This document shows positions 17,516 through 41,973 of a stretch of 42,376 nt of DNA, piece by piece (position 1 is the stretch's first letter; each line of letters starts with the position of its first letter). Position numbers and translations under genes: made by a program. The notes below the pieces were generated by a model, which ran no database searches, was not told the DNA's origin, and saw nothing but the letters and a program-made list of their open reading frames with translations. Where the stretch lies: assembly GCF_900156285.1 (NCBI RefSeq), contig NZ_FTNC01000023.1:1-42376 (forward strand). Direction: 5' to 3'. Source of the stretch: Halanaerobium kushneri. GTDB lineage: Bacteria > Bacillota > Halanaerobiia > Halanaerobiales > Halanaerobiaceae.

Positions 17516-18988
17516 ATGATTAATTTAGAAGTCAATGAAAAACAGTTAGAAAAAGCAATTGAACGAGCAAGAGAAAAAAATATAATTCTGCCAACTTTTG
17601 AGCAGATGAAAAATCCGGAATTAATTCCGGCTAAAATCAAAGAAAAATTGAAAGATATTGGTCTCTGGGATGTAAACAGTTATAATTTATTCCGTATTAG
17701 CTGGAAAAATGAGCCTAAAAAAGATGGGGGTCTTTATGATGGGGTAAATTATATTGAATTCCCTTCCGAATTGACTGGTGTTGATGCCAGGATTTTTGCA
17801 GTTGTGGGTAAATGGTTCCCCACTGGTGCACATAAGGTAGGTGCAACTTATGGCTGTCTTGCTCCGCAATTGGTGACCGGACAGTTTGATCCAACCTCCA
17901 GTCATGCAGTCTGGCCTTCAACTGGTAATTACTGTCGAGGTGGAGCCTATAATTCTCAGCTTTTGGCCTGTGATTCGATTGCAATTTTGCCAGAAGGCAT
18001 GAGTAAGGAAAGATTTGATTGGCTGCAGAAGGTAGCAGGTGAGGTAATCCCGACTCCCGGTACGGAAAGTAATGTAAAAGAAATTTTTGATAAAGTCTGG
18101 GAACTGCGGGAGACAAGAGATAATATCACAGTGTTTAATCAGTTTGAAGAATTTGGCAACCATCTCTGGCATTATGAAGTTACTGGTTCAGCAATGGAAG
18201 AAGTAATTAGAGATGAAATGAGAGATAATGATAATTATTTTGGTTTTTTTGCAACTTCTGGTTCTGCAGGTACCCTGGGAGCCGGAGATCATCTTAAAGA
18301 TCAGTTCCCTCAGAGCAAAATAGCAGTTGGAGAAGCACTGCAATGTCCAACCATTTTAAGTAATGGTTTTGGTGCTCATAGAATTGAAGGTATTGGAGAT
18401 AAACATATACCCTGGATTCATAATGTAAAAAATACAGATATGGCAATTGCTATTGATGATGAGCGCACAATGTCTCTGCTGCGTTTATTTAATGAGACAG
18501 CTGGACGAGAGTATTTGATAGAACAGGGAGTTTCAGAAGATTTTGTTGAGAAACTTGAACTTTTAGGGATTTCAGGAATTGCTAATTTAGTTGGGGCTAT
18601 TAAGATGGCTAAATTTTATGAACTGGATCAGAATCAAATGCTGATGACTGTGCTGACTGACTCATTAGAACTCTATACATCCCGTCTGGAAGAAATGAGG
18701 GAAGAAAGAGGAGAATATACAAGAGAAGATGCAATTAAAGATTATCACCGTTATCTGAGAGGGATTAATACAGAATATACTCTGGAAATGGGTCTGGAAG
18801 AAAGAAGACGGGTGCATAACCTGAAATATTATACCTGGATTGAACAGCAGGGTAGAGATTCTGAAGAACTCAATGCTCAGTGGTATGATTATGACAATTA
18901 CTGGGGTGGAATTCACTCTCAGGCAGAAGAAATTGACAAATTAATAGAAGAATTTAATCACAAAACAGGTTTATTAGAAGAGCTGTAG
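17516..18988 (+). CDS. Fold-type-II PLP-dependent enzyme (cysteine synthase-like), function unassigned
   Basis: 490 residues, long for this fold. The PLP Lys is probably Lys107 in PTGAHKVGATYG, the substrate/PLP loop is STGN (135-138), and the phosphate-binding Gly-rich loop is SGSAGTLGAG (about 248-257). About 100 extra C-terminal residues are rich in Glu/Arg/Tyr. Enzymes of this fold perform beta-elimination, beta-replacement or deamination of amino acids. It heads an operon with a threonine-synthase-like gene and yge-type genes, the place occupied by diaminopropionate ammonia-lyase (YgeX) in E. coli, so a lyase acting on a purine-derived amino acid is my inference. The ATG at 17516 fits GGAGG better than the ATG at 17513. 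Confidence 0.82.
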   Translation: MINLEVNEKQLEKAIERAREKNIILPTFEQMKNPELIPAKIKEKLKDIGLWDVNSYNLFRISWKNEPKKDGGLYDGVNYIEFPSELTGVDARIFAVVGKWFPTGAHKVGATYGCLAPQLVTGQFDPTSSHAVWPSTGNYCRGGAYNSQLLACDSIAILPEGMSKERFDWLQKVAGEVIPTPGTESNVKEIFDKVWELRETRDNITVFNQFEEFGNHLWHYEVTGSAMEEVIRDEMRDNDNYFGFFATSGSAGTLGAGDHLKDQFPQSKIAVGEALQCPTILSNGFGAHRIEGIGDKHIPWIHNVKNTDMAIAIDDERTMSLLRLFNETAGREYLIEQGVSEDFVEKLELLGISGIANLVGAIKMAKFYELDQNQMLMTVLTDSLELYTSRLEEMREERGEYTREDAIKDYHRYLRGINTEYTLEMGLEERRRVHNLKYYTWIEQQGRDSEELNAQWYDYDNYWGGIHSQAEEIDKLIEEFNHKTGLLEEL

Positions 18989-19013
18989 AATAATAGTAAT
19001 TGAGGTGAAGCAG

Positions 19014-20261
19014 ATGAAATATGTAACAGGGCTGCACTGTATTAAGTGTGGTAAAGAGTATGAAGCAGATCCTGAGCGTTATCTCTGTGACGATTGTGAA
19101 GATGGGATCTTAGATGTAGATTATGATTATCAAAAAATTATGGCTGAATGGTCAAAAGAAGATTTAAAAGCAAATCCAGATCAGCGCATCTGGCGTTTTG
19201 AACCACTTCTGCCGATTAAGCCGGAGACGGAAAAGCCTAAGCTTGCTGTTGGAGATACACCAGTTTACAATTCTCCAGTTTTGGCTGAAGAGTTTGGAAT
19301 TAAAAAGTTGATTATTAAAGATGATGGCTTAAACCCAACTGCATCTTTAAAAGATAGAGCCTCAGCAATGGCTGTTGTTAAGGCACAGGAGGCGGATGCA
19401 AAAACAGTTGCCTGTTCTTCGACCGGTAATGCAGCATCCTCTCTGGCTGGTAATATTGCTTCTATGGGGGGAAGAATGAATGCGGTTATTTTTGTGCCTG
19501 ACCGAGCTCCTGCAGGAAAGCTGGCCCAGCTGTTAATTTATGGAGCTGATGTAGTTTCAGTTAAAGGTTCCTATGAAGAAGCCTTTTATCTTTCAGCAGA
19601 AGCCATTAAAAAGTGGGGCTGGTATAATCGTAATGCTGCCATTAATCCTTATCTGGTAGAAGGTAAAAAAACCGTTTCTTTAGAGCTGGCTGAGCAGCTG
19701 GAATGGGAGATGCCGGACTGGCTTGTGTTTTCTGTTGGTGATGGCTGTACTATCGCGGGAGCTTATAAAGGTTTATATGATCTAAAACAGATTGGCTTTA
19801 TTGACAGGATACCCAGGTTACTGGGGGTTCAGGCAGAAGGTTGTGCTCCAATCACTGAAGCTTTTAGGACCGGAGAGGAACTGGAGGTTACAGCTGAGAA
19901 CACAATAGCAGATAGTATTGCAGTTGGTAAACCCCGAAACTGGTTAAAGGCGGTTAGAGCAATTAGAGACTCAGCGGGAGAAATGATTAATGTTAGTGAT
20001 GATCAAATTTTAGCTATGATGAGAAATTTAGGTAAAAAGACAGGCATTTTTGGCGAGCCTGCAGGAGTTGCTGGAATGGCAGGACTCAAAAAAGCTGCAG
20101 CAGAGGGAATTATTAAGCGAGATCAGAGTGCAGCTGTTGTAATTACTGGGAATGGTTTAAAGGATGTTAAAAATGCCCGTCGTGCAGCCGGTAATCCTAT
20201 TGAAGTTGAGCCGGATCTGGAAAAATTGACTGCTATTTTTGTCGAACAGGGTGTGACTTAA
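19014..20261 (+). CDS. Threonine-synthase-like PLP enzyme with N-terminal zinc ribbon
   Basis: 415 residues. An N-terminal zinc ribbon (Cys9, Cys12, Cys25, Cys28) precedes a fold-type-II PLP domain: PLP Lys113 in PTASLKDRA, SSTGN (135-139) and phosphate loop VGDGCTIAG. Canonical threonine synthase converts phosphohomoserine to threonine, but this copy lies inside a purine-degradation operon, only 25 bp after another fold-II enzyme, so a different elimination or ammonia-lyase reaction is likely. The ATG at 19014 has TGAGGTGA at proper distance; the GTG at 19005 lies within it. One base separates its stop from the regulator gene. Confidence 0.82.
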   Translation: MKYVTGLHCIKCGKEYEADPERYLCDDCEDGILDVDYDYQKIMAEWSKEDLKANPDQRIWRFEPLLPIKPETEKPKLAVGDTPVYNSPVLAEEFGIKKLIIKDDGLNPTASLKDRASAMAVVKAQEADAKTVACSSTGNAASSLAGNIASMGGRMNAVIFVPDRAPAGKLAQLLIYGADVVSVKGSYEEAFYLSAEAIKKWGWYNRNAAINPYLVEGKKTVSLELAEQLEWEMPDWLVFSVGDGCTIAGAYKGLYDLKQIGFIDRIPRLLGVQAEGCAPITEAFRTGEELEVTAENTIADSIAVGKPRNWLKAVRAIRDSAGEMINVSDDQILAMMRNLGKKTGIFGEPAGVAGMAGLKKAAAEGIIKRDQSAAVVITGNGLKDVKNARRAAGNPIEVEPDLEKLTAIFVEQGVT

Positions 20262-20262
20262 G

Positions 20263-20814
20263 ATGAGTGATAATATAAGACTTGGACAGAGAATTAGAAA
20301 AAAACGTCAGGCTAGAGGTATGAGTTTAAATGATGTAGCAGAGAAGATAAAGAAGACTTCAAGTTATTTAAGTCAGGTAGAAAGGGGGCTTGCCGAACCT
20401 TCTATTACTGCTCTGCGGGAGATTGCCAGAGCACTGGAAGTTCCGATTTTCTACTTTTTGATTGAGGAAGAGAATCATAATGCAGTGGTGCGCAAAGATG
20501 AACGCAGGATTTTGAATTTTCCCGGTTCACATCTGACCTTTGAACTGCTTTCTCCAGATTTAAATAGAGATATGGAAGTTATCGAGGCAACACTGGAGCC
20601 AGGTGCTGAGACAACAGACGAACCTTTAAATCATCTGGGAGAGGAATGTACGATTGTTATGCAGGGGAAGATGTTTATTCAGATTGGTGATCAGGAGTAT
20701 GAGTTGGAAAAAGGTGACAGCATATACTATAAGGCGAGCTTGCCTCATAAAATTAAGAGTATTGGTGAAGAAGATCTTCATTTCATATCAGCGATTACTC
20801 CCCCAAACTTCTAA
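20263..20814 (+). CDS. XRE-family regulator with C-terminal cupin
   Basis: 183 residues. Helix-turn-helix at about 8-62 (MSLNDVAEKIKKTSSYLSQ-ERG, PSITALREIARAL) and a small cupin barrel at about 110-178 (GEECTIVMQGKMFIQIG, YELEKGDSIYYKASLPHKI). This is the PuuR/SutR-type architecture, in which the cupin senses a small metabolite. It is co-transcribed with the PLP genes, one base after the threonine-synthase-like gene, so it probably regulates this island; the 17426-17465 palindrome is a candidate site. Inducer not identifiable. Confidence 0.9.
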   Translation: MSDNIRLGQRIRKKRQARGMSLNDVAEKIKKTSSYLSQVERGLAEPSITALREIARALEVPIFYFLIEEENHNAVVRKDERRILNFPGSHLTFELLSPDLNRDMEVIEATLEPGAETTDEPLNHLGEECTIVMQGKMFIQIGDQEYELEKGDSIYYKASLPHKIKSIGEEDLHFISAITPPNF

Positions 20815-20907: not shown

Positions 20908-22149
20908 GTGATAGAATTTGATCAAATAATGGAAAAAGCTGAAAGCTATCGTTCAGAAATTAGTGCGTTTTTAAGAGATATGATCAGAATTCCGAGTGAA
21001 AGCTGTGAGGAAAAAGAGGTAGTTTTAAGAATAAAGGAAGAGATGGAAAAGGTAGGCTTTGATAAGATAGAAATTGACGAAATGGGTAATATCCTTGGTT
21101 ATATAGGTAATGGAAGCCATGTAATTGCCATGGATGCTCATATTGACACTGTTGGTGTCGGAGATGATTCTCTCTGGGATTATGATCCTTATGAAGGTTA
21201 TGAAGATGATGAAATAATTGTAGGACGGGGAGCCAGCGATCAGGAGGGTGGAATGGCTTCAATGGTCTATGCCGGAAAGATAATTAAAGATTTAGGCTTA
21301 GAAGATGACTATACCCTGATTATTACCGGTACAGTACAAGAAGAAGATTGTGACGGCCTCTGCTGGCATTATATTATAGAAGAAGATGAAATCAAACCCG
21401 AATTTGTTGTAATTACCGAACCTTCATCCTGTAATATTTATCGCGGCCACCGGGGCAGAATGGAAATCAAAGTTAGTACTCATGGTGTTAGCTGTCACGG
21501 ATCAGCTCCAGAAAGAGGAGATAATGCGATCTACAAGATGGCACCAATTATCAATGAATTAAAAGCCCTGCATCCGAATTTAACACCACATGATTTTCTG
21601 GGTAAAGGAAGTCTGACTGTTTCCGAAATATTTTACAGCTCACCTTCTCGCTGTGCAGTTGCAGATGGCTGCAGTATCTCAATTGACCGCCGTCTGACTG
21701 CAGGAGAAAGCTGGCAGTTTGCTGTCCAGCAGGTTAAAAACTTACCGGCAGTTAATGATGCAGATGCAGAAGTAGAGATGTATAAATATGAAAGACCTTC
21801 CTATACCGGTCTGGTATATCCAATTGATTCTTATTTTCCTACCTGGTTGATTGAAGAAGATCATCCTGTCTGTCAGACGACAGTTGAAGCCTATAAAGAA
21901 TTGTTTAAAGAAGATCCTCTAGTTGATAAATGGACATTTTCCACGAATGGAGTTTCAATAATGGGACGTCATGGTATTCCCTGTATTGGTTTTGGACCCG
22001 GTCACGAAGATCAGGCTCATGCACCAAACGAAAAAACATGGAAATCAGAACTGGTTAAGGCGGCTGCAATTTATGCTGTGATTCCAAAGTTATTTGTGGA
22101 AAAGTATGCCGATCAGATGCCGGAAGAAACAGAAAATCTTTTAGCTTAG
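20908..22149 (+). CDS. YgeY-like M20 family metallohydrolase
   Basis: 413-residue di-zinc hydrolase of the M20/ArgE/YgeY group. Metal ligands are His78 and Asp111 (bridging, in [10 protein letters not shown]), with catalytic Asp80 and Glu145/146 in TVQEEDCDG; later ligands lie in VITEPS and the C-terminal [11 protein letters not shown]. The group includes the 'selenium metabolism-linked' YgeY hydrolases that cleave an amide or ureido bond in anaerobic urate breakdown. GTG start at 20908, supported by GGAGGT 9 bp upstream. It precedes the carbamoyltransferase, the same pairing as ygeY/ygeW in E. coli. The exact substrate is inferred from context. Confidence 0.88.
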
Positions 22150-22191
22150 TTTTTAAGGGTGCCGAACAAAAATCAAAGGAGGAATTATAAA

Positions 22192-23175
22192 ATGGAAACT
22201 CAATTAAAAGGAAAAGATTTTATTACACTACAGGAATGGACTAAAGATGAAATTGACACTTTACTGGATGTTTCATTTGATTTAAAAAGAAAATTTGCTA
22301 TGGGTGAACCCACACCATATTTAAGAGATAAAACAGCTTTTTTAATGTTTTTTGAACAGTCAACCAGAACCAGAAACTCAATGGAAGCTGGCCTGGCTCA
22401 GCTTGGTGGGCATGCTAACTTTTTAGATACCAGTACTATGCAGGTTTCTCACGGGGAAGTGGCTAAAGATACCGGTATTATTCTGGGAAGTTATGGACAT
22501 GCCATTGCCTGCCGTAACTGTGTCTGGGAAATTGGTAATAAATATCTGCGCTCTCTGGCTAATCATGCAAAAGTTCCGGTGATGAACTTACAGTGTGACC
22601 TTTATCATCCAATGCAGGGGATTGCCGATTTAATGACCATTAAAGAAAAGAAAAAAGAAACTAGAAATTTAAAGGTTTCAATTATCTGGGCCTATGCCAC
22701 CAGTCATAAAAAGCCTATTTCTGTACCTTTAACTCAGGCTTTACTTTTCCCACGTTATGGTATGGATGTGACCTTAGCCTATCCTGAGGGATATGAGATG
22801 CCGGATTGGGTTATCGAACAGGCTCGAGAAAATGCTGAAAAGCATAATGGAACTTTTAAAATTACTCATGATCAGGATGAAGCTTATCGTGATGCTGATA
22901 TAGTTATTCCGAAAAACTGGGGCAGCTGGGTTACAAATCAGGATGATGCAGTAATTGATGATCTTTTAGAATCAAATAAACACTGGAAGTGTACAGAAGA
23001 GAGAATGGCACTTGCTGATGATGATGTAATGTATATGCATGCTTTACCTGCTGACCGGGGTAATGAAGTTGAGGATTCTGTAATTGACGGTGAACATTCA
23101 ATTGTATTTACTGAGGCTGAAAATAGATTACACACTGCAAAAGCTGTAATGACCCTAACAATGGGTGGTAAGTAA
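22192..23175 (+). CDS. YgeW-like carbamoyltransferase
   Basis: 327-residue aspartate/ornithine carbamoyltransferase superfamily member. The carbamoyl-phosphate site is STRTR (57-61) with HPMQ (139-142); the second-substrate side has PKNWGSW and MHALPADRG in place of the DxxxSMG and HCLP of ornithine transferase. These replacements and the gene context point to the YgeW knotted-carbamoyltransferase group rather than arginine biosynthesis. In urate breakdown it would phosphorolyse a ureido intermediate to carbamoyl phosphate, an energy-yielding step. No carbamate kinase is present in the window. ATG at 22192 behind AAAGGAGGAA. Confidence 0.85.
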   Translation: METQLKGKDFITLQEWTKDEIDTLLDVSFDLKRKFAMGEPTPYLRDKTAFLMFFEQSTRTRNSMEAGLAQLGGHANFLDTSTMQVSHGEVAKDTGIILGSYGHAIACRNCVWEIGNKYLRSLANHAKVPVMNLQCDLYHPMQGIADLMTIKEKKKETRNLKVSIIWAYATSHKKPISVPLTQALLFPRYGMDVTLAYPEGYEMPDWVIEQARENAEKHNGTFKITHDQDEAYRDADIVIPKNWGSWVTNQDDAVIDDLLESNKHWKCTEERMALADDDVMYMHALPADRGNEVEDSVIDGEHSIVFTEAENRLHTAKAVMTLTMGGK

Positions 23176-23406: not shown

Positions 23407-24450
23407 ATGAAAAAAACATTAATTATTACTTTAATTTTAGTAATGGCGATCACAGCATCCCTAACAGCAATGGCTCAGGATACAAAAGTATTGAAACTCA
23501 GCCACTTAAACCCACAGCAGCCAAAAGAAGTTGCTACAGCAGCTATGGCAGAAGTATTTAAATCAATGGTTGAGAGTGGCACCAATGGCAGTATAGAAGT
23601 AGAAATTTATCCAAATGGTGTTTTAGGAAATGAAAGAGAAAGTATGGAACAGGTTCAAAGTGGAGTTACTCAAAGTTATATAGCATCTGGTGGAGGAATG
23701 GCAACCTTCTATCCAATGTTTTCTATAGTAAATATTCCTTTCTCTATTTCTAATTATTCTGTAGCTTATGAAGTATATGACGGTGAATTTGGTCAGCAAA
23801 TGGCAGCAGATATTGAAGAAAAAACAGGTTTTAAAGTACTTGGCTTTGGTGAATCAGGAGGGTTTTTCCAGCTGACAAATAGTGAACGTCCGATTAAAAC
23901 CCCGGCTGATATGGAAGGTTTAAAATTTAGAACAATGACTATTCCAATTCATATGGAATTTATGCGTTCACTTGGTGCTTCACCTACTCCAATTGCCTGG
24001 GCAGAACTTTATACAGCTCTCCAGACCGGAGTAGTTGATGGTCAGCATAACCCAATCCCAATTATCAAAATTGGTAAATTGGAAGAAGTGCAGAAGTACT
24101 TAACTCTGACCAATCATATGTATACACCTTATGTCTGGGTTTTAAACTCTGACTTCTATTCTTCCTTAACTTCTGAGGAACAGGTTGTGGTTGACGAGGC
24201 GGCAAGAGTGGCTAACCTGGCTGGCCGTGGTGTTAACAGATTAATTGAAGCTTCTGATGAGGGTCTTCCTTATTTAGCAGAAGAGATGGAAGTATATAAA
24301 CCTACAGCTGAAGAAATGCAGATGTTTAAAGATGCTGCAATTCCTGCTTCAATGGAATTTATTGAAGAAGAGTATGGTGAAGAAGGAGCTCAACTTGCTC
24401 AGGATTATCTTGATGCAATTGAAGCTGCTCAGGAGAAATTTGGAATGTAA
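23407..24450 (+). CDS. TRAP transporter substrate-binding protein (DctP type)
   Basis: 347 residues. Sec signal peptide (about 1-24, cleavage after AMAQ). The mature DctP fold has the ligand Arg175 in GLKFRTM and GASPTPIAWAELYTALQTGVVDGQ. This Arg normally salt-bridges a carboxylate, so the ligand is probably an organic acid. Next to ygeY/ygeW-like genes, a ureido acid or purine-breakdown carboxylate is plausible but unproven. AGGAGG precedes the ATG. A strong hairpin separates it from the membrane subunits. Confidence 0.92.
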   Translation: MKKTLIITLILVMAITASLTAMAQDTKVLKLSHLNPQQPKEVATAAMAEVFKSMVESGTNGSIEVEIYPNGVLGNERESMEQVQSGVTQSYIASGGGMATFYPMFSIVNIPFSISNYSVAYEVYDGEFGQQMAADIEEKTGFKVLGFGESGGFFQLTNSERPIKTPADMEGLKFRTMTIPIHMEFMRSLGASPTPIAWAELYTALQTGVVDGQHNPIPIIKIGKLEEVQKYLTLTNHMYTPYVWVLNSDFYSSLTSEEQVVVDEAARVANLAGRGVNRLIEASDEGLPYLAEEMEVYKPTAEEMQMFKDAAIPASMEFIEEEYGEEGAQLAQDYLDAIEAAQEKFGM

Positions 24451-24460
24451 ATTAAAATTT

Positions 24461-24487
24461 AAAAGGGACAGAGTCTCTGTCCCTTTT
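24461..24487 (+). terminator. Intercistronic hairpin between TRAP dctP and dctQ
   Basis: AAAAGGGACAGAG and CTCTGTCCCTTTT form a near-perfect palindrome. It ends in TTTT but no long T run, so it is more likely a partial terminator or 3' stabiliser that lifts binding-protein yield over the membrane subunits. Confidence 0.7.
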
Positions 24488-24500
24488 ATCAAGCTGAGGG

Positions 24501-25094
24501 GTGAGGGAATTGGGAAAGACTAGTATTTTTGATAAACTCGAAAACTTTGGAGATTGGCTGGGAAAAATAACTTTATTTATAGTCATAATTCTAACAGGGA
24601 TTCTTGTTATTACAGTATTAACCGGAGTTTTTTTCCGCTATATCATTCGCGATTCTTTAAGCTGGACAGAAGAACTGGCCCGGTATTTAATGATCTGGGC
24701 AGCTCTACTTGCAGTCAGTGTTGGAATAAAAGACAAAGAGCACGTCGGTATTCAGCTTTTAATTAAACAGTTTCCTCCAATTATAACAAAGTTAATTACC
24801 TTTGTTGTTTATGTTATCACCATTGTTTTTTTGACAGTTTTAACTTTTAAGGGTTATCAGGTAGCGGTTAAGGCACAAAATCAGCTTTCACTTGCCCTAA
24901 ATATTTCGATGTTCTGGCCTTTGATGAGTATTCCTGTTTCTGGTTTTCTGGCAATTATTCAGCAGTTTATTCAGCTGCTTTTGATCTTTAAACCGGGAAT
25001 GAAAATCTCTGATATTTTAGGAGAAACAGAAGTAGATGAAGCATTACGAGAAGTAAAAGAAGTGCAGATTGAAACAGAAAAAGGTCAGGAGTGA
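24501..25094 (+). CDS. TRAP transporter small membrane subunit (DctQ type)
   Basis: 197 residues with four membrane helices (about 20-45, 53-72, 90-115, 133-155). The conserved SWTEELARYLMIWAALLA stretch of DctQ proteins is present. It bridges binding protein and DctM. The start is uncertain: GTG at 24501 has almost no gap to GAGGGG, whereas TTG at 24510 would be spaced well. It ends 4 bp before the DctM ATG. Confidence 0.9.
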   Translation: MRELGKTSIFDKLENFGDWLGKITLFIVIILTGILVITVLTGVFFRYIIRDSLSWTEELARYLMIWAALLAVSVGIKDKEHVGIQLLIKQFPPIITKLITFVVYVITIVFLTVLTFKGYQVAVKAQNQLSLALNISMFWPLMSIPVSGFLAIIQQFIQLLLIFKPGMKISDILGETEVDEALREVKEVQIETEKGQE

Positions 25095-25098
25095 TAAA

Positions 25099-27982: not shown

Positions 27983-28072
27983 TAAAAAGAAAAAATTATG
28001 TTAAAAATCTGTTAATTTAAAATATTTTGTTATATAATATAAATAAGAATTAAATATTGTAAATTAGATTTC

Positions 28073-30641: not shown

Positions 30642-30643
30642 TA

Positions 30644-31985: not shown

Positions 31986-31986
31986 G

Positions 31987-33366: not shown

Positions 33367-34698
33367 TTGCTCTTATTAACAAATGGAACAGTGATTACTC
33401 ATGACCAGGAAAATCGGATTATCAAAAATGGAGCAGTTTTAATAGATGGGGGAGAAATTAAGGCTTTAGGAGAAACTGAGCTTTTAAAATCAAAGTATTC
33501 GGAAGCTGAAGTTAAGGATGTAGAGGGTAAAGTAATTATGCCGGGTATGATTAATACCCACATGCATATTTACAGTACTTTTGCCCGGGGGATGGACTTA
33601 AAAACAGATCAACCTCCCCGTCATTTTTTAGAAATTTTAGAGAAGATGTGGTGGAGAGTTGACAGTACTCTAAAGGCAGATGATATTTATTTCAGCGCCC
33701 TTTATGCATTTTTGACAGGTTTAAAGCAGGGGGTTACTTCTGTTTTTGACCACCATGCAAGCTATGGCCAGGTTAGATACAGCCTCGATTTGATTGCTAA
33801 AGCAGTGGAAGAACTCGGGATTAGAGCAGATCTCTGTTACGAAATTTCAGACCGCAATGGTCCAGAGCAGTCTCAGGATTCGATTGCAGAAAGCGAGAAC
33901 TTTTTGCGCAAGATTAGGGAAAAAAATTTAGATCATTTAAATGGAAGAATTGGACTGCATGCTTCTTTCACCTTAGAGGACGAGACTTTAGAGCAAGTTT
34001 CGGCTCTGGCAGATGACCTGGACAGTTCTTTTCATATTCATGTTGCTGAGGGTCAGACTGATTTAGAAGACAGCAGACTTAGAGGTTATAATGGAGCTGT
34101 CAGAAGGCTTGATCAGTATAATATCTGGCGGCCGGGAACAATGGCTATCCACGGTGTGCATCTGCAGGAAGGTGAGCTGGAGATTTTAAGAGATAATGAT
34201 TGTTATCTGATTAATAATCCGGAATCTAATATGGGTAATGCAGTTGGAGCAGCTCCGTTAAAAGAGGCACTTGATAAAGGCTTGAAAGTTGGACTGGGAA
34301 CTGATGGTTATACAACTGACATGTTTGAGAGTATCAAGTTTGCTAATTTAATTCTCAAACATCAGAATCGGGATCCTCGTCTGGGCTGGACTGAAATTCC
34401 TCAAATGGTATTTAAGACTAATGCAGAGCTGGCAACAGAAACTTTTGGGCCCCGTCTGGGAGTTTTAGAAGCAGGAGCAGCTGCAGATATTATTGTGGTG
34501 GATTATAAATCACCGACTGAGATAAATAGTGATAATACCTATGCGCATATTTTATTTGGAATCAATGGTGGAATGGTTGATACGACAATTGTAAAAGGAA
34601 GAATTTTAATGGAAAATCGGGAGGTGCAGGTAGTTGATGATGAGAAAATCACCCATGAAACAGGAGAGCAGGCAGACGATTTCTGGCGTAGATTTTAA
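33367..34698 (+). CDS. ssnA: SsnA-like putative aminohydrolase
   Basis: 443-residue amidohydrolase matching E. coli SsnA in layout. Metal site H65-x-H67 in MINTHMHIYS, HIHVAEG, AIHGVHL and LGTDGYTTDMFE. SsnA proteins are tied to anaerobic purine/urate clusters, where a ring-opening or deamination role is proposed. TTG start at 33367 behind AAGGAGTGG. It overlaps the next FAD-subunit gene by about 60 bp, so it is coupled to the second hydroxylase. Distinct from the preceding 8-oxoguanine-type paralogue. Confidence 0.87.
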   Translation: MLLLTNGTVITHDQENRIIKNGAVLIDGGEIKALGETELLKSKYSEAEVKDVEGKVIMPGMINTHMHIYSTFARGMDLKTDQPPRHFLEILEKMWWRVDSTLKADDIYFSALYAFLTGLKQGVTSVFDHHASYGQVRYSLDLIAKAVEELGIRADLCYEISDRNGPEQSQDSIAESENFLRKIREKNLDHLNGRIGLHASFTLEDETLEQVSALADDLDSSFHIHVAEGQTDLEDSRLRGYNGAVRRLDQYNIWRPGTMAIHGVHLQEGELEILRDNDCYLINNPESNMGNAVGAAPLKEALDKGLKVGLGTDGYTTDMFESIKFANLILKHQNRDPRLGWTEIPQMVFKTNAELATETFGPRLGVLEAGAAADIIVVDYKSPTEINSDNTYAHILFGINGGMVDTTIVKGRILMENREVQVVDDEKITHETGEQADDFWRRF

Positions 34699-35551
34699 AG
34701 AATATTTTCAGCCAGAAAGTATTCAAAAAGCTCTAGAAATTAGGGCAGAATATGGGGATCAAATTGAAGTAGCTGCAGGTTCGACAGATTTACTGGTTGC
34801 AAATTACGAAAAATTGCACGAAATTAAATACTGGCTGGATCTGGTTAAGCTGGATCAACTGAAAAAAATTGAGGTTATAGATAATGAGCTTCATATTGGA
34901 GCAATGGTAACTCATTTACAGCTGATGAAGTCAGACTTAATTAAGAAAAATCTGGCAGTGCTGGCTGCAGCAGCTGAAGATGTTGGTTCACCGCAGATCA
35001 GAAGTCGAGGAACAATTGGTGGTAATATATGTACTTCTTCTCCGGCAGGCGATCTCTTAGCTCCACTGTTAAGTTATGGAGCCAGTTTTAAACTGCAGAG
35101 TACAGAAGGAGAACGAATTGTAAAAGCAGAAGAATTTTTTACAGGACCAAAAAGAAATTCAATGGAAACAGACGAACTTTTAACTGAAATTATAATTCCA
35201 CTTACAGATAATAAAAGAGAAGGTTCCTGGATTAAAGTTGGACGGAGGAAAGCACTTGTTATTTCTACTTTAACTCTGGCTGTTGTACTGGAATTTGAAG
35301 GAGAAAAAATTGTTAAGGCAGGTATTGCAATGGGTTCAGTGGCTCCAACCCCGGTCAGACTGAAGGGAATAGAAGCCGTAATGGTAGATCAGAAACTTAC
35401 AGATCTGGATTATAAAGCTCTGGGTAGAGAAGTTAAAGCAAGTATTAATCCGATTGATGATTTAAGAGGAACTAAAGAATACAGAGAAGATGTTGCAGTT
35501 GATGTGATGGTTAGAGCTTTAAAAGAGATAGAAAGGAAGGTGAGCAGCTGA
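34637..35551 (+). CDS. Molybdenum hydroxylase FAD-binding subunit, set 2
   Basis: 304-residue FAD subunit with AAGSTDLLV and TIGGNICTSSPAGDLLAPL. The start is unclear: TTG 34634, ATG 34637, ATG 34640 and ATG 34655 are all in frame inside ssnA; GAGGTG about 11 bp ahead of 34637 makes it my choice. The stop overlaps the next ATG. Belongs with the FeS and split Mo subunits. The order FAD-FeS-Mo(N)-Mo(C) mirrors the F-S-L-M subunit set of clostridial nicotinate dehydrogenase. Confidence 0.88.
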   Translation: MMRKSPMKQESRQTISGVDFKEYFQPESIQKALEIRAEYGDQIEVAAGSTDLLVANYEKLHEIKYWLDLVKLDQLKKIEVIDNELHIGAMVTHLQLMKSDLIKKNLAVLAAAAEDVGSPQIRSRGTIGGNICTSSPAGDLLAPLLSYGASFKLQSTEGERIVKAEEFFTGPKRNSMETDELLTEIIIPLTDNKREGSWIKVGRRKALVISTLTLAVVLEFEGEKIVKAGIAMGSVAPTPVRLKGIEAVMVDQKLTDLDYKALGREVKASINPIDDLRGTKEYREDVAVDVMVRALKEIERKVSS

Positions 35552-36036
35552 TGCAGATTACTTTAACAGTTAATGGAGAGCAAAGAGAGTTGGAAGTTAC
35601 TCCCTATACCAGGCTGCTCGACTTATTAAGAGAAGATCTCGGTTTGACAGGAGTCAAGGAGGGCTGTGGCAAGGGCGAATGTGGTGCCTGCACAGTTATC
35701 ATGAATGGAGAATTAACTGCTTCCTGTCTGGTACCTGCACCTCAGGCAGATCAGGCTGAGATTATAACAGTAGAGGGTTTGGGCACCAGGGATAATCTAC
35801 ATCCAATTCAGGAATCATTTGTAGAAGCAGGTGCAGTACAGTGTGGTTATTGTATTCCAGGAATGGTGCTGGCTGGTAAAAGACTTCTGGATGAAAATCC
35901 CAAACCAACAGAAAAAGAAGTTCGCTATGGACTTTCCGGTAATATTTGTCGCTGTACAGGTTATGCTAAGATTATCGATGCCGTAATGCTGGCAGCAGAT
36001 AAACTTGCTGTTGAAGGAAGTGATAGTAATGACTGA
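35551..36036 (+). CDS. Molybdenum hydroxylase 2Fe-2S subunit, set 2
   Basis: 161 residues with all eight cluster ligands: Cys39, 44, 47, 59 and Cys98, 101, 133, 135 (GYCIPG...CRC). The ATG shares a base with the FAD subunit stop (TGATG), so translation is coupled; AGGAAGGTGAG lies upstream. Ends 8 bp inside the next gene. Confidence 0.93.
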   Translation: MQITLTVNGEQRELEVTPYTRLLDLLREDLGLTGVKEGCGKGECGACTVIMNGELTASCLVPAPQADQAEIITVEGLGTRDNLHPIQESFVEAGAVQCGYCIPGMVLAGKRLLDENPKPTEKEVRYGLSGNICRCTGYAKIIDAVMLAADKLAVEGSDSND

Positions 36037-37375
36037 TCAAAGTAAGAGAATTAAAGATTATTTTTGCAAGCATACAACCCGCTGTACAATAGAGGGAGTA
36101 AAAAAGAGTAAGCGTTTTGTCGGCCATGATGTCCTTAAAGCAGATGCCTGGGATAAGGTAACAGGTGATGCAGTATATCCTGATGACATCAGTTTCGATG
36201 ATATGCTATACATTAAAATTAAACGGGCAGTTCACCCACATGCAATTTTAAAAGATATTGATATTTCTCGAGCCAAAAAGGTTCAGGGAGTAGTTGATAT
36301 CATAGTTGCCGAAGATATTCCTGATGTCAGACAGTTTGGTTTAATTATTCGTGATCAACCGGTTTTAATTGCCCCAGGAGAAAAGATGCGCTATATGGGA
36401 GATGCTCTGGCAATTGTAGTTGCCGAAACTAAAGAAGCAGCCAAAAAGGCCAGGGATTTAATTAAAGTTAAAGTTGAAGAATTAGAAGTGATCACTGATC
36501 CGTTTAGAGCTATGGAAGATGATGCTCCAAATATTCATCCTGATGGTAATATTGTAATAACTCACCATTTAAATCGTGGTGATGTTGATACAGCTTTTAA
36601 AGATTCAGCAATAGTAGAAGAAAATCGCTATCAGACTCAGTTTATTGATCAGCTGCCGATGCAGAATGAAGCTGGGGTTGCTCTTTATGATGAACGCCAT
36701 GGGGTTGTTGATATCTGGGCTGCAACTCAGTGGCTGCATGATACTCAGGCTGATGTGGCTCAGTCTCTAAGATTATCAAAAGATCAGGTTAGAATTATTC
36801 AGCCTACTATTGGTGGAGCCTTTGGAAAAAAAGAAGATGTTTCGGTTCATATTCATCTGGCAATTGCGGCCATGAGGACAGGAAGACCGGTCAAACTCTG
36901 TTTTACCAGAGAAGAATCAATGATTACCCAGTCGAAACGGCATCCAATTACAATTATAAATAAAACAGGTGTAGACAGGGATGGTTACTTAACTGCCTGG
37001 GAAACTAAATTTATTGGGGATACGGGAGCCTATGCCTCAAGTGGACCTGCAGTTGTGCATAAAGGAATGTACCATGCTACAGGACCATATAACTGTCCCA
37101 ATTTACGTGGAGTTTCTCATGCGGTTTATACAAATAACACCTATGCCGGTGCAATGCGTGGTTTTGGTACTGCCCAGGGAGCTTTTGCTTATGAACAGCA
37201 GATGGATATCCTGGCTCATAAATTAAATATGGATCCAGCTGAATTTAGACTCAAAAATATTTACAAAAAAGATTCAATTACTCCTAACGGTCAGCAGCTA
37301 ACTCACAGTGTAAATGCTGAAGAAACAATTAAACGAGTGATGGAGCTCAGTGACTGGAAAGGAGGCAGAAAATAA
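36029..37375 (+). CDS. Molybdenum hydroxylase Mo subunit, N-terminal half (NdhL-like), set 2
   Basis: 448 residues covering the a/b-hammerhead domain and first Mo-cofactor domain. It contains GGAFGKKE (to Glu269) and AMRGFGTAQ, and ends after RLKNIYKKDSITPNGQ. Counted against bovine xanthine oxidase from memory, Glu269 aligns with Glu802 and Phe379 with Phe914, but Lys345 replaces Arg880. The C-terminal half is a separate gene overlapping by one base (TAATG). About 49 kDa, close to the large molybdopterin subunit of Eubacterium barkeri nicotinate dehydrogenase. ATG 36029; no strong ribosome site, so coupling is likely. Substrate not determined. Confidence 0.87.
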   Translation: MTDQSKRIKDYFCKHTTRCTIEGVKKSKRFVGHDVLKADAWDKVTGDAVYPDDISFDDMLYIKIKRAVHPHAILKDIDISRAKKVQGVVDIIVAEDIPDVRQFGLIIRDQPVLIAPGEKMRYMGDALAIVVAETKEAAKKARDLIKVKVEELEVITDPFRAMEDDAPNIHPDGNIVITHHLNRGDVDTAFKDSAIVEENRYQTQFIDQLPMQNEAGVALYDERHGVVDIWAATQWLHDTQADVAQSLRLSKDQVRIIQPTIGGAFGKKEDVSVHIHLAIAAMRTGRPVKLCFTREESMITQSKRHPITIINKTGVDRDGYLTAWETKFIGDTGAYASSGPAVVHKGMYHATGPYNCPNLRGVSHAVYTNNTYAGAMRGFGTAQGAFAYEQQMDILAHKLNMDPAEFRLKNIYKKDSITPNGQQLTHSVNAEETIKRVMELSDWKGGRK

Positions 37376-38370
37376 TGAAAAAATTTGGACGCGGAATGGC
37401 AACAATTATGTTTGGATTTGGTTATGGCGAGGGTTTTCCTGATCATTCAATTGCTTCGATTGAAATTAAAGAAGATGAGAGAATAGTTATTAGAACAGCG
37501 GCAGCAGATGTCGGACAGGGAGTTATTACAACAGTAATTCAAATTGCTGCTGAAATTTTAAGGATCAATCCTAATTATTTCGAAGTTGTTCAGGGTGATA
37601 CCCATAAAACAAAAAATTCTGGCTCAACTTCTGCCACCAGACAGACTTATTTTACCGGGAATGCAGTTAAAAAAGCTGCCGAAGATATGCTGGCTAATCT
37701 TTATCACTATGGAAGTCTTGAATTTCGCAGCAATCATCCCGAAATTGCAATTGAAGATGGAAAAATCTATATGTATGATGATCCTGATGACTATATAACT
37801 TACTGGGAAATGGCTGAAAGAGTTAAAGAAAGAGGCGAAAAACTGGAAGCAGAGGGGAGCTTTTTCCCGGTGACTTATAGTCCTGATGAGAATGGTCAGG
37901 CTGATAAAGTTTATGTTGCCTATACTTTTCTTTCTCAGGTGATTGATATTGAAATAGATACTGATACCGGTATAATTGATCTTTTAGATGTTTATTCTGC
38001 TATTGATTTAGGAAAAGCAATTAATCCTAAAAATGTGGAAGGACAGATTGAAGGTGGAACTGTACAGGGGCTGGGAATGGGAATGATGGAAGATCAGGTA
38101 ATCCGCAATGGTAAGACTTTAAATGCGGGAATGACAGATTATCTGGTTCCGACAAGTGTTGATGTGCCTAAATTTAAACACTATCTGGTTGAAGAAGAAG
38201 ATTCCGAGGGACCATTTGGAGCTAAGGGTGTAGGAGAGCCAACTTTGATTGCGGCAGCACCAGCTCTGGCAAATGCAGTTTATGATGCAATCGGTGTTAG
38301 ATTTTTTGATCTACCAATTAGTCCTTCTAAAATTAAAAAGGCTTTAAAAGAAAAGGAAGAAAATAGCTGA
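37375..38370 (+). CDS. Molybdenum hydroxylase Mo subunit, C-terminal half (NdhM-like), set 2
   Basis: 331 residues starting exactly at the second Mo-cofactor domain (MKKFGRGMATIMFGFGYGEG). It has AADVGQGVITTVIQIAAE and SGSTSATRQT for cofactor binding, and catalytic Glu288 in AKGVGEPT. The preceding stop and this ATG overlap as TAATG with GGAGG upstream (37362-37366), an organised coupling signal rather than a random stop. About 36 kDa, matching the medium subunit of nicotinate dehydrogenase. Both halves together (779 residues) equal the intact paralogue. Confidence 0.87.
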   Translation: MKKFGRGMATIMFGFGYGEGFPDHSIASIEIKEDERIVIRTAAADVGQGVITTVIQIAAEILRINPNYFEVVQGDTHKTKNSGSTSATRQTYFTGNAVKKAAEDMLANLYHYGSLEFRSNHPEIAIEDGKIYMYDDPDDYITYWEMAERVKERGEKLEAEGSFFPVTYSPDENGQADKVYVAYTFLSQVIDIEIDTDTGIIDLLDVYSAIDLGKAINPKNVEGQIEGGTVQGLGMGMMEDQVIRNGKTLNAGMTDYLVPTSVDVPKFKHYLVEEEDSEGPFGAKGVGEPTLIAAAPALANAVYDAIGVRFFDLPISPSKIKKALKEKEENS

Positions 38371-39077
38371 TGACTAATAATTATCTAATTACTGGAGAAA
38401 AAGGGGTTGGCAAATCATCACTGCTGACCCAGCTGCTCCAGCAGGTGGATCTAAAAATAGCAGGTTTTGCAGTTGCCAGAATTAGGGCCAAAAATGGAAA
38501 GCCATTAGTATTTAAACTAAATCAAGCCTCAGAATTGATGGAAAAAGGGGCTGCTGCTTTAATTAAAACTGCAGAAACTGATTTTTCAGCAGCGGAGCTT
38601 GTAGCCCGGGATCAGCAGGAGGCAAAAAGCTGTCAGGAAACCTTTGCACTTTTTGAAGGTGCTCCAAAAACGTTAAATCTTTCAGCTGCAGCAGGTGATT
38701 CACTTAAGCTTTTAAGACATCAAAAAATTTTCGCCTATCGTGAAGTTACTTCTGATAATTTTAATATCCAGACTGATGTTTTTAATAACTTAGGTTTTGA
38801 ACTCCTGGACCAGTCGGGTGAGATTGTTGTAATGGATGAATTGGGGCGATTTGAACTGAAAGCAGAAAAATTTCAGAAAAAAGTATTTTCTTTGCTTGAT
38901 TCAGAAAAAATTGTCATCGGAGTTATAAAAAATGAATCAAACCCATTTCTGGATAGAATTCGCCAGAGAGATGATCTAAAAATTTATGAATTAACAGCAT
39001 CAAACCAGGAGCAGAGAAGAAAAATTTTAGTTGATATTTTAGAAAATTTAAAAAATAATAATCAAGATAAGCTTTAA
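38370..39077 (+). CDS. THEP1-like P-loop NTPase in the hydroxylase operon
   Basis: 235-residue P-loop protein of the NTPase_1/THEP1 type. Walker A GEKGVGKS (9-16) and Walker B with the family-typical VVMDELGRFE (Asp156, Glu157). It shares one base with the Mo-subunit stop (TGATG), so it is produced with the hydroxylase. Known THEP1 proteins hydrolyse NTPs in vitro but lack a firm physiological role. Here a chaperone role in loading molybdopterin nucleotide or sulfur/selenium onto the hydroxylase is possible, since no XdhC or MocA gene is seen. This is inference. Confidence 0.75.
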   Translation: MTNNYLITGEKGVGKSSLLTQLLQQVDLKIAGFAVARIRAKNGKPLVFKLNQASELMEKGAAALIKTAETDFSAAELVARDQQEAKSCQETFALFEGAPKTLNLSAAAGDSLKLLRHQKIFAYREVTSDNFNIQTDVFNNLGFELLDQSGEIVVMDELGRFELKAEKFQKKVFSLLDSEKIVIGVIKNESNPFLDRIRQRDDLKIYELTASNQEQRRKILVDILENLKNNNQDKL

Positions 39078-39110
39078 CATTAAATAAAAATAAATAGGAG
39101 AGTGGAAAAA

Positions 39111-40196: not shown

Positions 40197-40224
40197 TAAA
40201 GAAAGAGAAAGGGGGGAGCTTATC

Positions 40225-41973
40225 TTGAAACAGGAAATATTAAGGCAGGCTCGCGGTCTGGTAAAGGCAGATAAAGTGTTTAAAAATGCAGTAATCGTAG
40301 ACGTTTTTAATGAAAGATTGATTGAAAACGATATTGCAGTTGCAGATGGGATTATTATTGGAATTGGTGATTATGAAGGAAAAGAAGAAATTGATTTAGG
40401 AGGGAGAATTGTTACTCCTGGTTTGATTGATGCTCATCTGCACATTGAGTCTTCGATGACCAATGTAGATGAATTTGCCCGAGTGATTATTCCCAGAGGA
40501 ACTACTACAATTGTTGCTGATCCTCATGAAATTGCAAATGTTGCTGGTCTGACAGGAATTAAATATTTACTTAAAGCTGGAAATGCTCAACCCTGGAATT
40601 TTAATTTAATGCTTCCTTCCTGTGTTCCGGCATCAAAATTTGAAAATTCTGGTGCAGAATTATCGGCAGCAGATTTAAAGACTTTAATTGACGAAAAAGG
40701 AATTTTTGGTCTGGGAGAGGTAATGGACTTTCCCTCAGTAATTAATGGTGAGTCTGGAATCTGGGATAAGATTGAAATGGCTGCTGATTTATTTAAGGAT
40801 GGTCATTCGCCAGGGCTTTCAGAAAAAGATTTGAATGCTTATTTACTGGCAGATATTGAAGCTGATCATGAAGCTACAACAGCTGCTGAAGCAATTGAAA
40901 AAGTGGCTAAGGGAATGTATATCATGATTAGAGAGGGATCGGTAACCAGAGATCTAGTTAGTCTGCTGCCAGCGGTCAACAGCAGTAATTCTTCTCGTTT
41001 TATGTTTGCAACAGATGACAGACATCCAGGAGATTTAATAAAAGAAGGACAGATTGACTTTGCAGTTAGAAAAGCAATACAGTATGGGCTCTCACCTTTG
41101 AGGGCGGTTAAGCTGGCAACCATTAATGCTGCTCAGGCACTGGGAATTAAAAAAATCGGTGCTGTTGCTCCAGGATACAGAGCAGATTTGCTGGTTTTCG
41201 ATAATTTAAGAGAATTTGCTGTAAAAAAAGTTTACAAAGATGGCCGCCTGGTGGCTGAAGATGGTACTCTGTTAAAGTCAATTGATGATAAGATTTCACT
41301 TGATAAAGACGATTTTATGAATAAAGATATTGAAGAAAAAATTTTCAATTCGGTTAGAATTGGCAATATTTCAGAAAGTGATTTTCGTCTGCCTGCAGCT
41401 AAGAAATATCGGGTAATAGAATTAATTAAAGATCAGGTAGTAACAGGAAAATCAATTTATCACACAGAGGCAGAATATGATGACGAACCACCTGCAATTG
41501 AATTAATTGGACACAATTTGGTTAAGTTGGCGGTTGTAGAAAGACATCATCGAACTGGCAATGTTGGTCTGGGACTTTTGCGTAATTTTGGCCTGCGTCG
41601 GGGAGCAATTGCGACTTCTATTGGTCATGATGCTCATAATATTGTTGTGGCAGGGTTGGGAGCTAGAGACATGGAACTTGCAGTGCGTGAGATTGAAAAA
41701 ATGCAGGGGGGATTGGTAATAGTTGTGAATGGAAAAGTAGAAGCGACCCTCCCACTACCAGTTGCAGGGTTAATGGCTGTTAAGTCGGTTAAAGAAGTAG
41801 CAAATCGTTTAGAGAAGATGCGTGAAATTGCAAATAGCCTTGGTGTCAATCGTGATGGGCCATTTATGACTTTATCTTTTATGGCATTAACGGTTATTCC
41901 TGAGTTGAAATTAACTGATCAGGGACTATTTGATGTTAGTAAATTTGAAAATGTTGAGTTAATTATAGAATGA
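40225..41973 (+). CDS. ade: Adenine deaminase
   Basis: 582-residue metallo-amidohydrolase converting adenine to hypoxanthine and ammonia. H71-x-H73 (DAHLHIESSM), His101 (ADPHEIANV), Glu165 (GLGEVMDFP), DGHSPGLSEKDLNAY, IEADHEAT and ATDDRHPGD are all as in bacterial Ade; the C-terminal Ade domain (VGLGLLRNFGLRRGAIA) is complete. TTG start at 40225 with a strong GGGGGGAG site 7 bp upstream. Last gene of the island. It feeds hypoxanthine to the hydroxylases. Confidence 0.95.
   Translation: MKQEILRQARGLVKADKVFKNAVIVDVFNERLIENDIAVADGIIIGIGDYEGKEEIDLGGRIVTPGLIDAHLHIESSMTNVDEFARVIIPRGTTTIVADPHEIANVAGLTGIKYLLKAGNAQPWNFNLMLPSCVPASKFENSGAELSAADLKTLIDEKGIFGLGEVMDFPSVINGESGIWDKIEMAADLFKDGHSPGLSEKDLNAYLLADIEADHEATTAAEAIEKVAKGMYIMIREGSVTRDLVSLLPAVNSSNSSRFMFATDDRHPGDLIKEGQIDFAVRKAIQYGLSPLRAVKLATINAAQALGIKKIGAVAPGYRADLLVFDNLREFAVKKVYKDGRLVAEDGTLLKSIDDKISLDKDDFMNKDIEEKIFNSVRIGNISESDFRLPAAKKYRVIELIKDQVVTGKSIYHTEAEYDDEPPAIELIGHNLVKLAVVERHHRTGNVGLGLLRNFGLRRGAIATSIGHDAHNIVVAGLGARDMELAVREIEKMQGGLVIVVNGKVEATLPLPVAGLMAVKSVKEVANRLEKMREIANSLGVNRDGPFMTLSFMALTVIPELKLTDQGLFDVSKFENVELIIE

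What the first reader, a model, noticed from the sequence alone, without database searches (positions are those of the whole stretch)
17516..41973. Variant anaerobic purine/urate degradation island
YgeY-, YgeW- and SsnA-like genes, two Mo hydroxylases, 8-oxoguanine-type and adenine deaminases and two transporters are collected in one 24-kb plus-strand block. Yet YgfK, HyuA, carbamate kinase and a clear YgeX are missing. In their place are two tandem PLP enzymes and a PreA-like Fe-S protein. The overall chemistry may be a new route from urate to ammonia and a C3 acid.
Basis: partly seen in the sequence, partly recalled or inferred. Interest (0 to 1): 0.8.

Follow-up and report, generated by a model that had tools for sequence, protein, structure and literature searches.

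The report
Urate-breakdown cluster with swapped final enzyme
An anaerobic bacterium carries a conserved block of genes that probably breaks uric acid down to ammonia and pyruvate by the recently described reductive route, but with a pair of uncharacterised vitamin-B6 enzymes where the usual last enzyme should be.

Summary
The block is real: 21 plus-strand genes at 17513-41973. It is a variant of the reductive urate pathway published in 2025, not a wholly new route. Three of the four 'missing' functions are accounted for: the PreA-like gene has the make-up of UacX, the reported YgfK substitute of C. difficile; a HyuA-type hydantoinase is encoded elsewhere in the genome (homologues lie inside the cluster in three relatives); so is a carbamate kinase.

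The fourth, YgeX, was not found in the genome. Where G044 (same class, another family) carries YgeX in a cluster otherwise homologous and in the same order, the window carries two PLP genes: a 491-aa CysK-like protein (PALP491) and a threonine-synthase-like protein (ThrC418). The pair recurs with carbamoyltransferase, carbamate kinase, hydantoinase, YgeY, SsnA and YgfK genes in several phyla.

I read the pair as an unrecognised, widespread alternative for the diaminopropionate step (inferred; no biochemistry). Against strict replacement: YgeX lies in the same stretch in 3 of 80 loci, and elsewhere in the genome in 3 of 27 PALP491-bearing genomes.

In passing: a lineage-restricted leader RNA, a conserved split of the second Mo-hydroxylase large subunit, and no yqeB match.

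The parts
17513..18988 (+). PALP491: CysK/CBS-like fold-type II PLP enzyme with N- and C-terminal extensions; proposed half of the YgeX-replacing pair
   Evidence: No NCBIfam family over cut-off, best cysK 80 bits; Lys108 in TG(A/S)HKVGA invariant in 10 of 10 aligned (PLP role inferred); AF2 model pLDDT 69.4, pTM 0.79, nearest PDB CBS and CysK; neighbourhoods
19005..20261 (+). ThrC418: threonine-synthase-like PLP enzyme, second half of the pair; not the only ThrC-type gene
   Evidence: TIGR00260 216.8 vs 167.1; another ThrC on C10, 265.5 bits; adjacent to PALP491 in 26 of the 27 PALP491-bearing genomes among 41, own included
20263..20814 (+). XRE-cupin regulator, probable cluster regulator
   Evidence: HTH_3 + Cupin_2; beside the pair in 17 of 18 fetched relatives
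20908..22149 (+). YgeY, M20 ureido-acid hydrolase
   Evidence: TIGR03526 717.7 vs 321.5; 70% identical to E. coli YgeY
22159..23175 (+). YgeW-like carbamoyltransferase (CTase) with proline-rich loop
   Evidence: 34% to E. coli YgeW; shares the WAY..KPxSVP and YMHxLPAD segments, which the genome's own OTC- and ATC-type sequences lack; below the YgeW cut-off
23407..26382 (+). TRAP transporter DctP/DctQ/DctM (missing in many relatives)
   Evidence: DctP TIGR00787 219.4 vs 175.05; DctQ/DctM named from position and appearance, not from a profile; presence in relatives
26636..27982 (+). NCS2 xanthine/urate-type permease (PbuX)
   Evidence: TIGR03173 448.5 vs 414.15
28072..28230 (+). Three-way-junction leader RNA upstream of xdh1, no Rfam family
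   Evidence: z -3.92 for 28060-28260; z -5.4 to -6.9 in 4 relatives; no Rfam match; model R2 strong in 9 of 61 genomes, once each at this site, 7 of the 9 being its own training rows
28350..31985 (+). Xdh1: Mo hydroxylase large, FAD and FeS subunits
   Evidence: XdhA/XdhB/XdhC-like, below equivalog cut-offs
31975..33351 (+). 8-oxoguanine-deaminase-type amidohydrolase
   Evidence: PRK08203 603.2 vs 532
33367..34698 (+). SsnA aminohydrolase
   Evidence: TIGR03314 536.6 vs 455.5
34634..38370 (+). Xdh2: FAD, FeS, and Mo large subunit split in two ORFs (36005-37375 and 37375-38370)
   Evidence: N-terminal half: nicotinate dehydrogenase 3hrd_A 332 bits vs 161 next; split in 14 of 17 other loci that cover it
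38370..39077 (+). NTPase_1-type protein
   Evidence: PF03266 95.6 bits
39102..40196 (+). UacX-like: DHOD/PreA barrel with C-terminal 4Fe-4S pair, no FAD domain found; proposed dioxopurine (yanthine) reductase
   Evidence: PF01180 144 bits + Fer4 models; a second DHOD-type gene (31% to it) lies on C24 beside ATCase- and dihydroorotase-like genes
40225..41973 (+). Adenine deaminase
   Evidence: TIGR01178 606.7 vs 472.5
42121..42220 (+). Purine riboswitch, guanine-type by its ACUAUG segment (rule recalled), for a gene beyond the contig end
   Evidence: RF00167 73 vs 37 bits; sequence

Best explanation
The block encodes the reductive urate pathway in a variant of the C. difficile (UacX) type. Adenine and oxidised guanine are deaminated (Ade, 8-oxoguanine deaminase) and hydroxylated (one Xdh) to urate. 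The other Mo hydroxylase reduces urate to 2,8-dioxopurine. UacX reduces the ring, SsnA opens it, and the unlinked HyuA opens the hydantoin to 2,3-diureidopropionate. The YgeW-like transcarbamylase and YgeY remove the two carbamoyl groups; carbamoyl phosphate goes to an unlinked carbamate kinase for ATP. The resulting 2,3-diaminopropionate is cleaved to pyruvate and ammonia by PALP491 and ThrC418 in place of YgeX. Why two enzymes is a guess: YgeX is reported equally active on D- and L-diaminopropionate (PMC12507026), and the pair may divide the two enantiomers. Shown here: gene content, conservation, no YgeX match in this genome, and the positional exchange with YgeX in G044. Inferred: every reaction, including which Xdh does which step and the joint PLP step.
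For: Family assignments. The pathway and its YgfK-to-UacX variant are described biochemically (PMC12507026). HyuA: 411.6 and 411.9 vs 393.25 bits, 37% to E. coli HyuA; homologues at 46-52% identity lie inside the cluster in G019, G035 and G040 and on the cluster contig in G015. Carbamate kinase 411.5 vs 358.25. No YgeX in the own genome. Pair plus gene set in 17 of 18 fetched relatives. Swap 1: G044 has YgeX (TIGR03528 584.3 vs 532.25) directly before CTase (78%), YgeY (59%), PbuX (68%), Xdh1 Mo (70%), 8-oxoguanine deaminase (72%), SsnA (57%), Xdh2, UacX (69%), Ade (59%) and, about 6 kb on, HyuA (47%); neither PALP491 nor ThrC418 in the 51 kb fetched. Swap 2: L134 has HyuA, YgeW (64% to E. coli), YgeY, YgfK, SsnA and Xdh around ThrC418-PALP491 and no YgeX match of 300 bits in 21 kb. 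Of the 80 PALP491 loci kept, at 100 bits: ThrC418 51, carbamoyltransferase 29, carbamate kinase 22, HyuA 21, Xdh 19, YgeY 15, SsnA 11, YgfK 9, YgeX 3. Of 41 genomes, 27 (own included, three as contig-end fragments) carry PALP491; 26 have ThrC418 next to it, 3 have YgeX, elsewhere.
Against: YgeX lies in the same stretch as PALP491-ThrC418 in 3 of 80 loci (L120, L124, L129) and elsewhere in 3 of 27 PALP491-bearing genomes, so the pair may do something additional. The G044 exchange is not one gene for two alone: XRE-cupin, TRAP and NTPase also gave no match there, and PALP491 was not sought in the rest of G044. 24 of 80 PALP491 loci have none of the pathway families at 100 bits (several are short contigs); in G039 PALP491 sits beside a glycyl-radical enzyme. 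29 of 80 loci show no ThrC418. G035 shows no CTase or YgeY in the fetched stretch. XdhD's Glu606 lies in an 11-residue insertion absent from Xdh1 and Xdh2, so neither could be singled out as urate reductase. ThrC418 passes threonine-synthase cut-offs, and the CTase is far below the YgeW cut-off.
Confidence: 0.65

Rival explanations
1. The pathway is as above, but PALP491 and ThrC418 perform an extra or different step (e.g. beta-replacement on diaminopropionate or elimination from the monoureido acid albizziin) rather than the YgeX reaction.
For: YgeX in the same stretch at 3 of 80 loci and in 3 of 27 PALP491-bearing genomes; PALP491 is closest to beta-replacement enzymes CysK/CBS.
Against: 24 of 27 PALP491-bearing genomes, the own one included, have no YgeX over cut-off, so diaminopropionate would have no known exit; G044 has YgeX where the window has these genes.
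Confidence: 0.22
2. The PLP pair is ordinary amino-acid metabolism (threonine and cysteine synthesis) that happens to lie beside the cluster.
For: ThrC418 passes thrC cut-offs; PALP491 resembles CysK.
Against: Another ThrC (C10, 265.5 bits) and 309-aa CysK-like frames on C39 and C14 exist; the pair recurs with carbamoyltransferase, carbamate kinase, hydantoinase and YgeY in several phyla.
Confidence: 0.05
3. The whole block serves another purine-like or ureido substrate, with urate only incidental.
For: In L094 and L100 the lower genes (PALP491, ThrC418, YgeY, carbamoyltransferase) sit with a TRAP transporter and no ring-opening genes in the about 21 kb fetched, so the lower module may work on imported ureido acids.
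Against: The window carries SsnA, a UacX-like protein, two Xdh sets, adenine and 8-oxoguanine deaminases, a xanthine permease and a purine riboswitch.
Confidence: 0.08

Closest known systems
E. coli yge/ygf reductive urate cluster (xdhD-ygfM, ygfK, ssnA, hyuA, ygeW, yqeA, ygeY, ygeX)
   Same: SsnA, YgeY (70% to E. coli), hydantoinase, transcarbamylase, carbamate kinase and Mo hydroxylase homologues
   Different: No YgfK and no YgeX over cut-off; HyuA and carbamate kinase unlinked; two Mo hydroxylases with separate FAD and FeS subunits, one with split large subunit; PLP pair instead of YgeX
C. difficile urate cluster with UacX and UacY (PMC12507026, Results part 1 and Discussion read)
   Same: PydA/PreA-type protein without a FAD domain instead of YgfK
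   Different: Carbamoyltransferase instead of UacY; no YgeX; FAD subunits with both Xdh; no yqeB match in this genome. C. difficile sequences were not compared directly
Nicotinate dehydrogenase (PDB 3hrd; subunit names NdhL/NdhM recalled)
   Same: Closest solved relative of the Xdh2 N-terminal half, there too a separate 425-aa chain
   Different: Purine-cluster context; no yqeB match
YgeX diaminopropionate ammonia-lyase (TIGR03528)
   Same: Same position in an otherwise homologous cluster (G044)
   Different: ThrC418 is 23% to E. coli YgeX over 356 columns (53.5 bits), PALP491 only a 46-column match of 33.9 bits

Membership tests
Reductive (2,8-dioxopurine) urate pathway cluster | SsnA | tested here: met
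   536.6 vs 455.5 bits
Reductive (2,8-dioxopurine) urate pathway cluster | Ring reductase YgfK or UacX | tested here: met
   No YgfK; DHO_dh + 4Fe-4S protein in cluster, second DHOD-type gene elsewhere. UacX identity rests on domain make-up and context; C. difficile UacX was not aligned
Reductive (2,8-dioxopurine) urate pathway cluster | HyuA hydantoinase | tested here: met
   On C37, not in the block, 411.6 vs 393.25; homologues inside the cluster in three relatives
Reductive (2,8-dioxopurine) urate pathway cluster | Carbamate kinase (with a transcarbamylase) | tested here: met
   On C19, not in the block, 411.5 vs 358.25
Reductive (2,8-dioxopurine) urate pathway cluster | YgeY | tested here: met
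   717.7 vs 321.5
Reductive (2,8-dioxopurine) urate pathway cluster | YgeX ammonia-lyase | tested here: not met
   None over cut-off in the genome
Reductive (2,8-dioxopurine) urate pathway cluster | Mo hydroxylase that reduces urate (XdhD Glu606) | tested here: inconclusive
   Glu606 lies in an insertion missing from Xdh1, Xdh2 and E. coli XdhA
Reductive (2,8-dioxopurine) urate pathway cluster | Enzyme activities | not testable with these tools
   -
YgeW | NCBIfam ygeW cut-off 500 bits | tested here: not met
   171.6 bits; YgeW-like loop and motifs present
Threonine synthase (ThrC418) | thrC profile cut-off | tested here: met
   216.8 vs 167.1; PRK08197 309.6 vs 303
Threonine synthase (ThrC418) | Arg of the NPYRIEGQKT segment (role in substrate phosphate binding recalled) | tested here: inconclusive
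   Leu in 9 and Gln in 1 of 10 aligned ThrC418; Arg in the threonine synthase 2zsj; no paper seen for the role
Selenium-dependent Mo hydroxylase system | YqeB (TIGR03309) | tested here: not met
   0 matches in own genome; E. coli control rings

The most novel reading that the evidence does not exclude
PALP491 and ThrC418 are a previously unrecognised two-enzyme terminal module of anaerobic purine/ureido-acid breakdown, spread over many bacterial phyla; PALP491 without a nearby ThrC418 also occurs in two Asgard-archaeal contigs. In some Chloroflexi the module sits with two carbamoyltransferases and a carbamate kinase, so both carbamoyl groups could be cleaved phosphorolytically for ATP. Its chemistry may differ from YgeX (enantiomer-split lyases, or a beta-replacement that conserves the C3 skeleton).
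Probability: 0.5. Interest if true: 0.72.

Novelty: new variant of a known kind. Interest (0 to 1): 0.55.

Why it matters
The reductive urate pathway was worked out only in 2025, with YgeX as its last step. If PALP491/ThrC418 is an alternative last step, surveys that use YgeX as a marker would miss urate degraders, and surveys that accept any PF00291 neighbour as YgeX (PMC12507026, Figure 3 legend) would mislabel them. Two purified proteins would test it.

Tried and rejected
Rejected: the PreA-like protein as the housekeeping PyrD (a second DHOD-type gene lies beside ATCase- and dihydroorotase-like genes). ThrC418 as the only threonine synthase. A frameshift as the cause of the split Xdh2 (split in 14 of 17 other loci covering it; fused in G029, G040, G057; my notebook entry 3, 'all 16', is wrong and superseded). 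A known riboswitch for the leader RNA (Rfam at E up to 10 gave two chance-level matches). A widespread RNA (model R2: 9 of 61 genomes strong, one forward-strand hit each, all at this site; 7 of these 9 are the model's own rows, the other two, G003 and G004, are close to rows; weaker hits are the reverse strand of the same site in G004, G006, G010 and G013, or E above 0.1 in G018, G043 and G056; stricter filters were in use). Model R1 lost the inner helices and was not used. XdhD Glu606 as a discriminator gave nothing. The PALP491 model only confirmed a CysK/CBS fold.

Literature: eight answered searches; judged by titles and abstract starts of the listed papers, none describes this pair in urate breakdown. 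The library lacks most subscription journals; the other 2025 pathway study discussed in PMC12990295 was not seen. Papers seen: PMC12507026 (abstract, part 1 of 3 of Results, Discussion), PMC12990295 (first of two parts), PMC4581275, PMC6022934 and PMC2276186 (passages), PMC11448449 (abstract start in a listing and a term search without hits).

Only the 80 best of 584 PALP491 relatives were fetched, with at most 10 kb flanks, so absences there mean 'not within the fetched stretch'; three of the 80 (L087, L088, L091) appear to be the contigs of G019, G018 and G023 again. ORF calls in GC-rich loci were unreliable; counts rest mostly on tblastn. The Fisher value ignores relatedness.
Full report
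What is there. The window is a whole contig (G000:C33) of a 3.22 Mb, 99.5% complete genome. From 17513 to 41973 the 21 genes run on the plus strand: PALP491, ThrC418, an XRE-cupin regulator, YgeY, a transcarbamylase, a three-gene TRAP transporter, an NCS2 xanthine-type permease, Xdh1 (Mo, FAD, FeS), an 8-oxoguanine-deaminase-type amidohydrolase, SsnA, Xdh2 (FAD, FeS, Mo in two ORFs), an NTPase, a PreA-like Fe-S flavoprotein and adenine deaminase.

The missing genes. PMC12507026 (abstract, part of Results, Discussion) describes the pathway: XdhD reduces urate to 2,8-dioxopurine; YgfK, or in C. difficile the PydA-type UacX, reduces the ring; SsnA and HyuA open the rings; YgeW (or UacY) and YgeY remove the ureido groups; YgeX makes pyruvate. 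The window's PreA-like protein has the UacX make-up (dihydroorotate-dehydrogenase-type barrel plus C-terminal 4Fe-4S, no FAD domain found), and a second DHOD-type gene lies elsewhere beside ATCase- and dihydroorotase-like genes. A hydantoinase over cut-off lies on C37, beside ORFs that by eye resemble a tungstate-type transporter. Its homologues lie inside the cluster in G019, G035 and G040 and on the cluster contig in G015. Of 41 genomes, 25 of 27 with PALP491 and 3 of 14 without it have a strong homologue (318 bits or more; relatedness not corrected for). Carbamate kinase lies on C19. YgfK is not found over cut-off.

The remaining gap is YgeX. None is found over cut-off in this genome. Of the 27 genomes with PALP491 (own included), three have YgeX (G006, G009, G010), in each case away from the cluster. 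In G044, of the same class but another family, a YgeX over its cut-off stands directly before carbamoyltransferase, YgeY, PbuX, Xdh1, 8-oxoguanine deaminase, SsnA, Xdh2, UacX, Ade and, further on, HyuA, at 45-78% identity to the window proteins and in the same order. The 51 kb fetched hold neither PALP491 nor ThrC418; they also show no XRE-cupin, TRAP or NTPase match. I read this as a natural exchange of YgeX for the pair.

Wider distribution. Titles name Chloroflexi, Bipolaricaulota, Synergistaceae, Deltaproteobacteria, Spirochaetota, Clostridia, Acidobacteriota, KSB1, Neomarinimicrobiota, Acidimicrobiia and two Asgard archaea; most titles say MAG. Clustering 1042 ORFs without reference to the pathway gave, after PALP491 itself, ThrC418 (46 loci), carbamoyltransferase (26), carbamate kinase (20), an unannotated 192-aa family (19), HyuA (18), Xdh (18) and a family-2 glycosyltransferase (18) as the largest families. 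With tblastn at 100 bits, 56 of 80 loci hold at least one pathway family other than ThrC418 and 24 hold none. Of 11 loci with YgfK (400 bits) or SsnA (250 bits), 10 have ThrC418 and 2 have YgeX. L134 has an almost E. coli-like set (HyuA, YgeW, YgeY, YgfK, SsnA, Xdh) with ThrC418-PALP491 and no YgeX match of 300 bits. In Chloroflexi loci L125 and L141 the order is second carbamoyltransferase, carbamoyltransferase, carbamate kinase, ThrC418, PALP491. In L094 and L100 the lower module sits with a TRAP transporter and no ring-opening genes in the fetched stretch, which hints that the window's TRAP imports a ureido acid.

Against a simple swap. L120, L124 and L129 carry YgeX as well. In G039 PALP491 stands beside a glycyl-radical enzyme. 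So the pair may be an alternative, an addition, or both. PALP491 was the search anchor, so how often ThrC418 occurs without it is unknown; 29 of 80 loci show no ThrC418 nearby. ThrC418 is the more YgeX-like by sequence (53.5 vs 33.9 bits).

The carbamoyltransferase. It is far below the YgeW cut-off but shares with E. coli YgeW the proline-rich loop segment and the YMHxLPAD stretch, which the genome's own OTC- and ATC-type sequences lack. PMC4581275 (passages) treats the proline-rich loop as a loop that helps set specificity and classify transcarbamylases. I call it YgeW-like, not YgeW.

The Mo hydroxylases. Xdh2's large subunit is two ORFs here and in 14 of 17 other loci that cover it, fused in G029, G040 and G057. 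Its N-terminal half is closest among solved structures to nicotinate dehydrogenase 3hrd_A. YqeB, which PMC2276186 (passages) ties to selenium-dependent Mo hydroxylases, has no match in this genome. Which Xdh reduces urate stays open.

The leader RNA. Between PbuX and xdh1 a conserved promoter-like stretch (28009-28038) precedes a three-way-junction RNA (28072-28230). It folds better than shuffles in the window (z -3.9) and in four relatives (z -5.4 to -6.9). In the 7-sequence alignment 3 of 23 pairs change on both sides and stay paired, which is modest support. It has no Rfam match. Among 61 genomes it was found in the own genus and one other genus of the family, always at this site (7 of the 9 were the model's own rows). 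G012 has a short hairpin there instead, which argues for a stability element as much as for a riboswitch.

Verdict. A new variant of a known pathway; the PLP pair is the part worth testing. The corrections made on checking did not call for a change of the odds.

Noticed in passing
window 28072-28230: Orphan three-way-junction leader RNA upstream of the Xdh1 genes, once each in 9 of 61 genomes searched (own included; 7 are the model's own rows), no Rfam family; helix 3 encloses from a few to about 80 nt.
   Followed up: partly
window 36005-38370: Mo-hydroxylase large subunit split into two abutting ORFs, as in nicotinate dehydrogenase; split in 14 of 17 other loci that cover it.
   Followed up: yes
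window 42121-42220: Purine riboswitch at the contig end; in G009 and G001 the gene after Ade encodes a 438-aa protein that looks like a permease (by eye).
   Followed up: partly
own genome (G000): No yqeB match although YgeY and SsnA belong to families named for selenium metabolism.
   Followed up: partly
L069 10819-18500: In G039 a PALP491 homologue lies beside a glycyl-radical enzyme nearest to indoleacetate decarboxylase (870 vs 1100 bits, below cut-off) and a 2-hydroxyglutaryl-CoA-dehydratase-type gene.
   Followed up: no
L094, L100: TRAP transporter, YgeY, carbamoyltransferase, ThrC418 and PALP491 together without ring-opening genes in the fetched stretch: perhaps a stand-alone ureido-acid module.
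   Followed up: partly
window 16361-17291: Two small genes upstream of the cluster (DUF134-like and OsmC-like by eye) are also upstream of it in G001 and G010.
   Followed up: no
L111 9001-12117 and similar Chloroflexi loci: A family-2 glycosyltransferase gene lies between ThrC418 and PALP491, and a 183-aa protein without a Pfam match follows PALP491.
   Followed up: no
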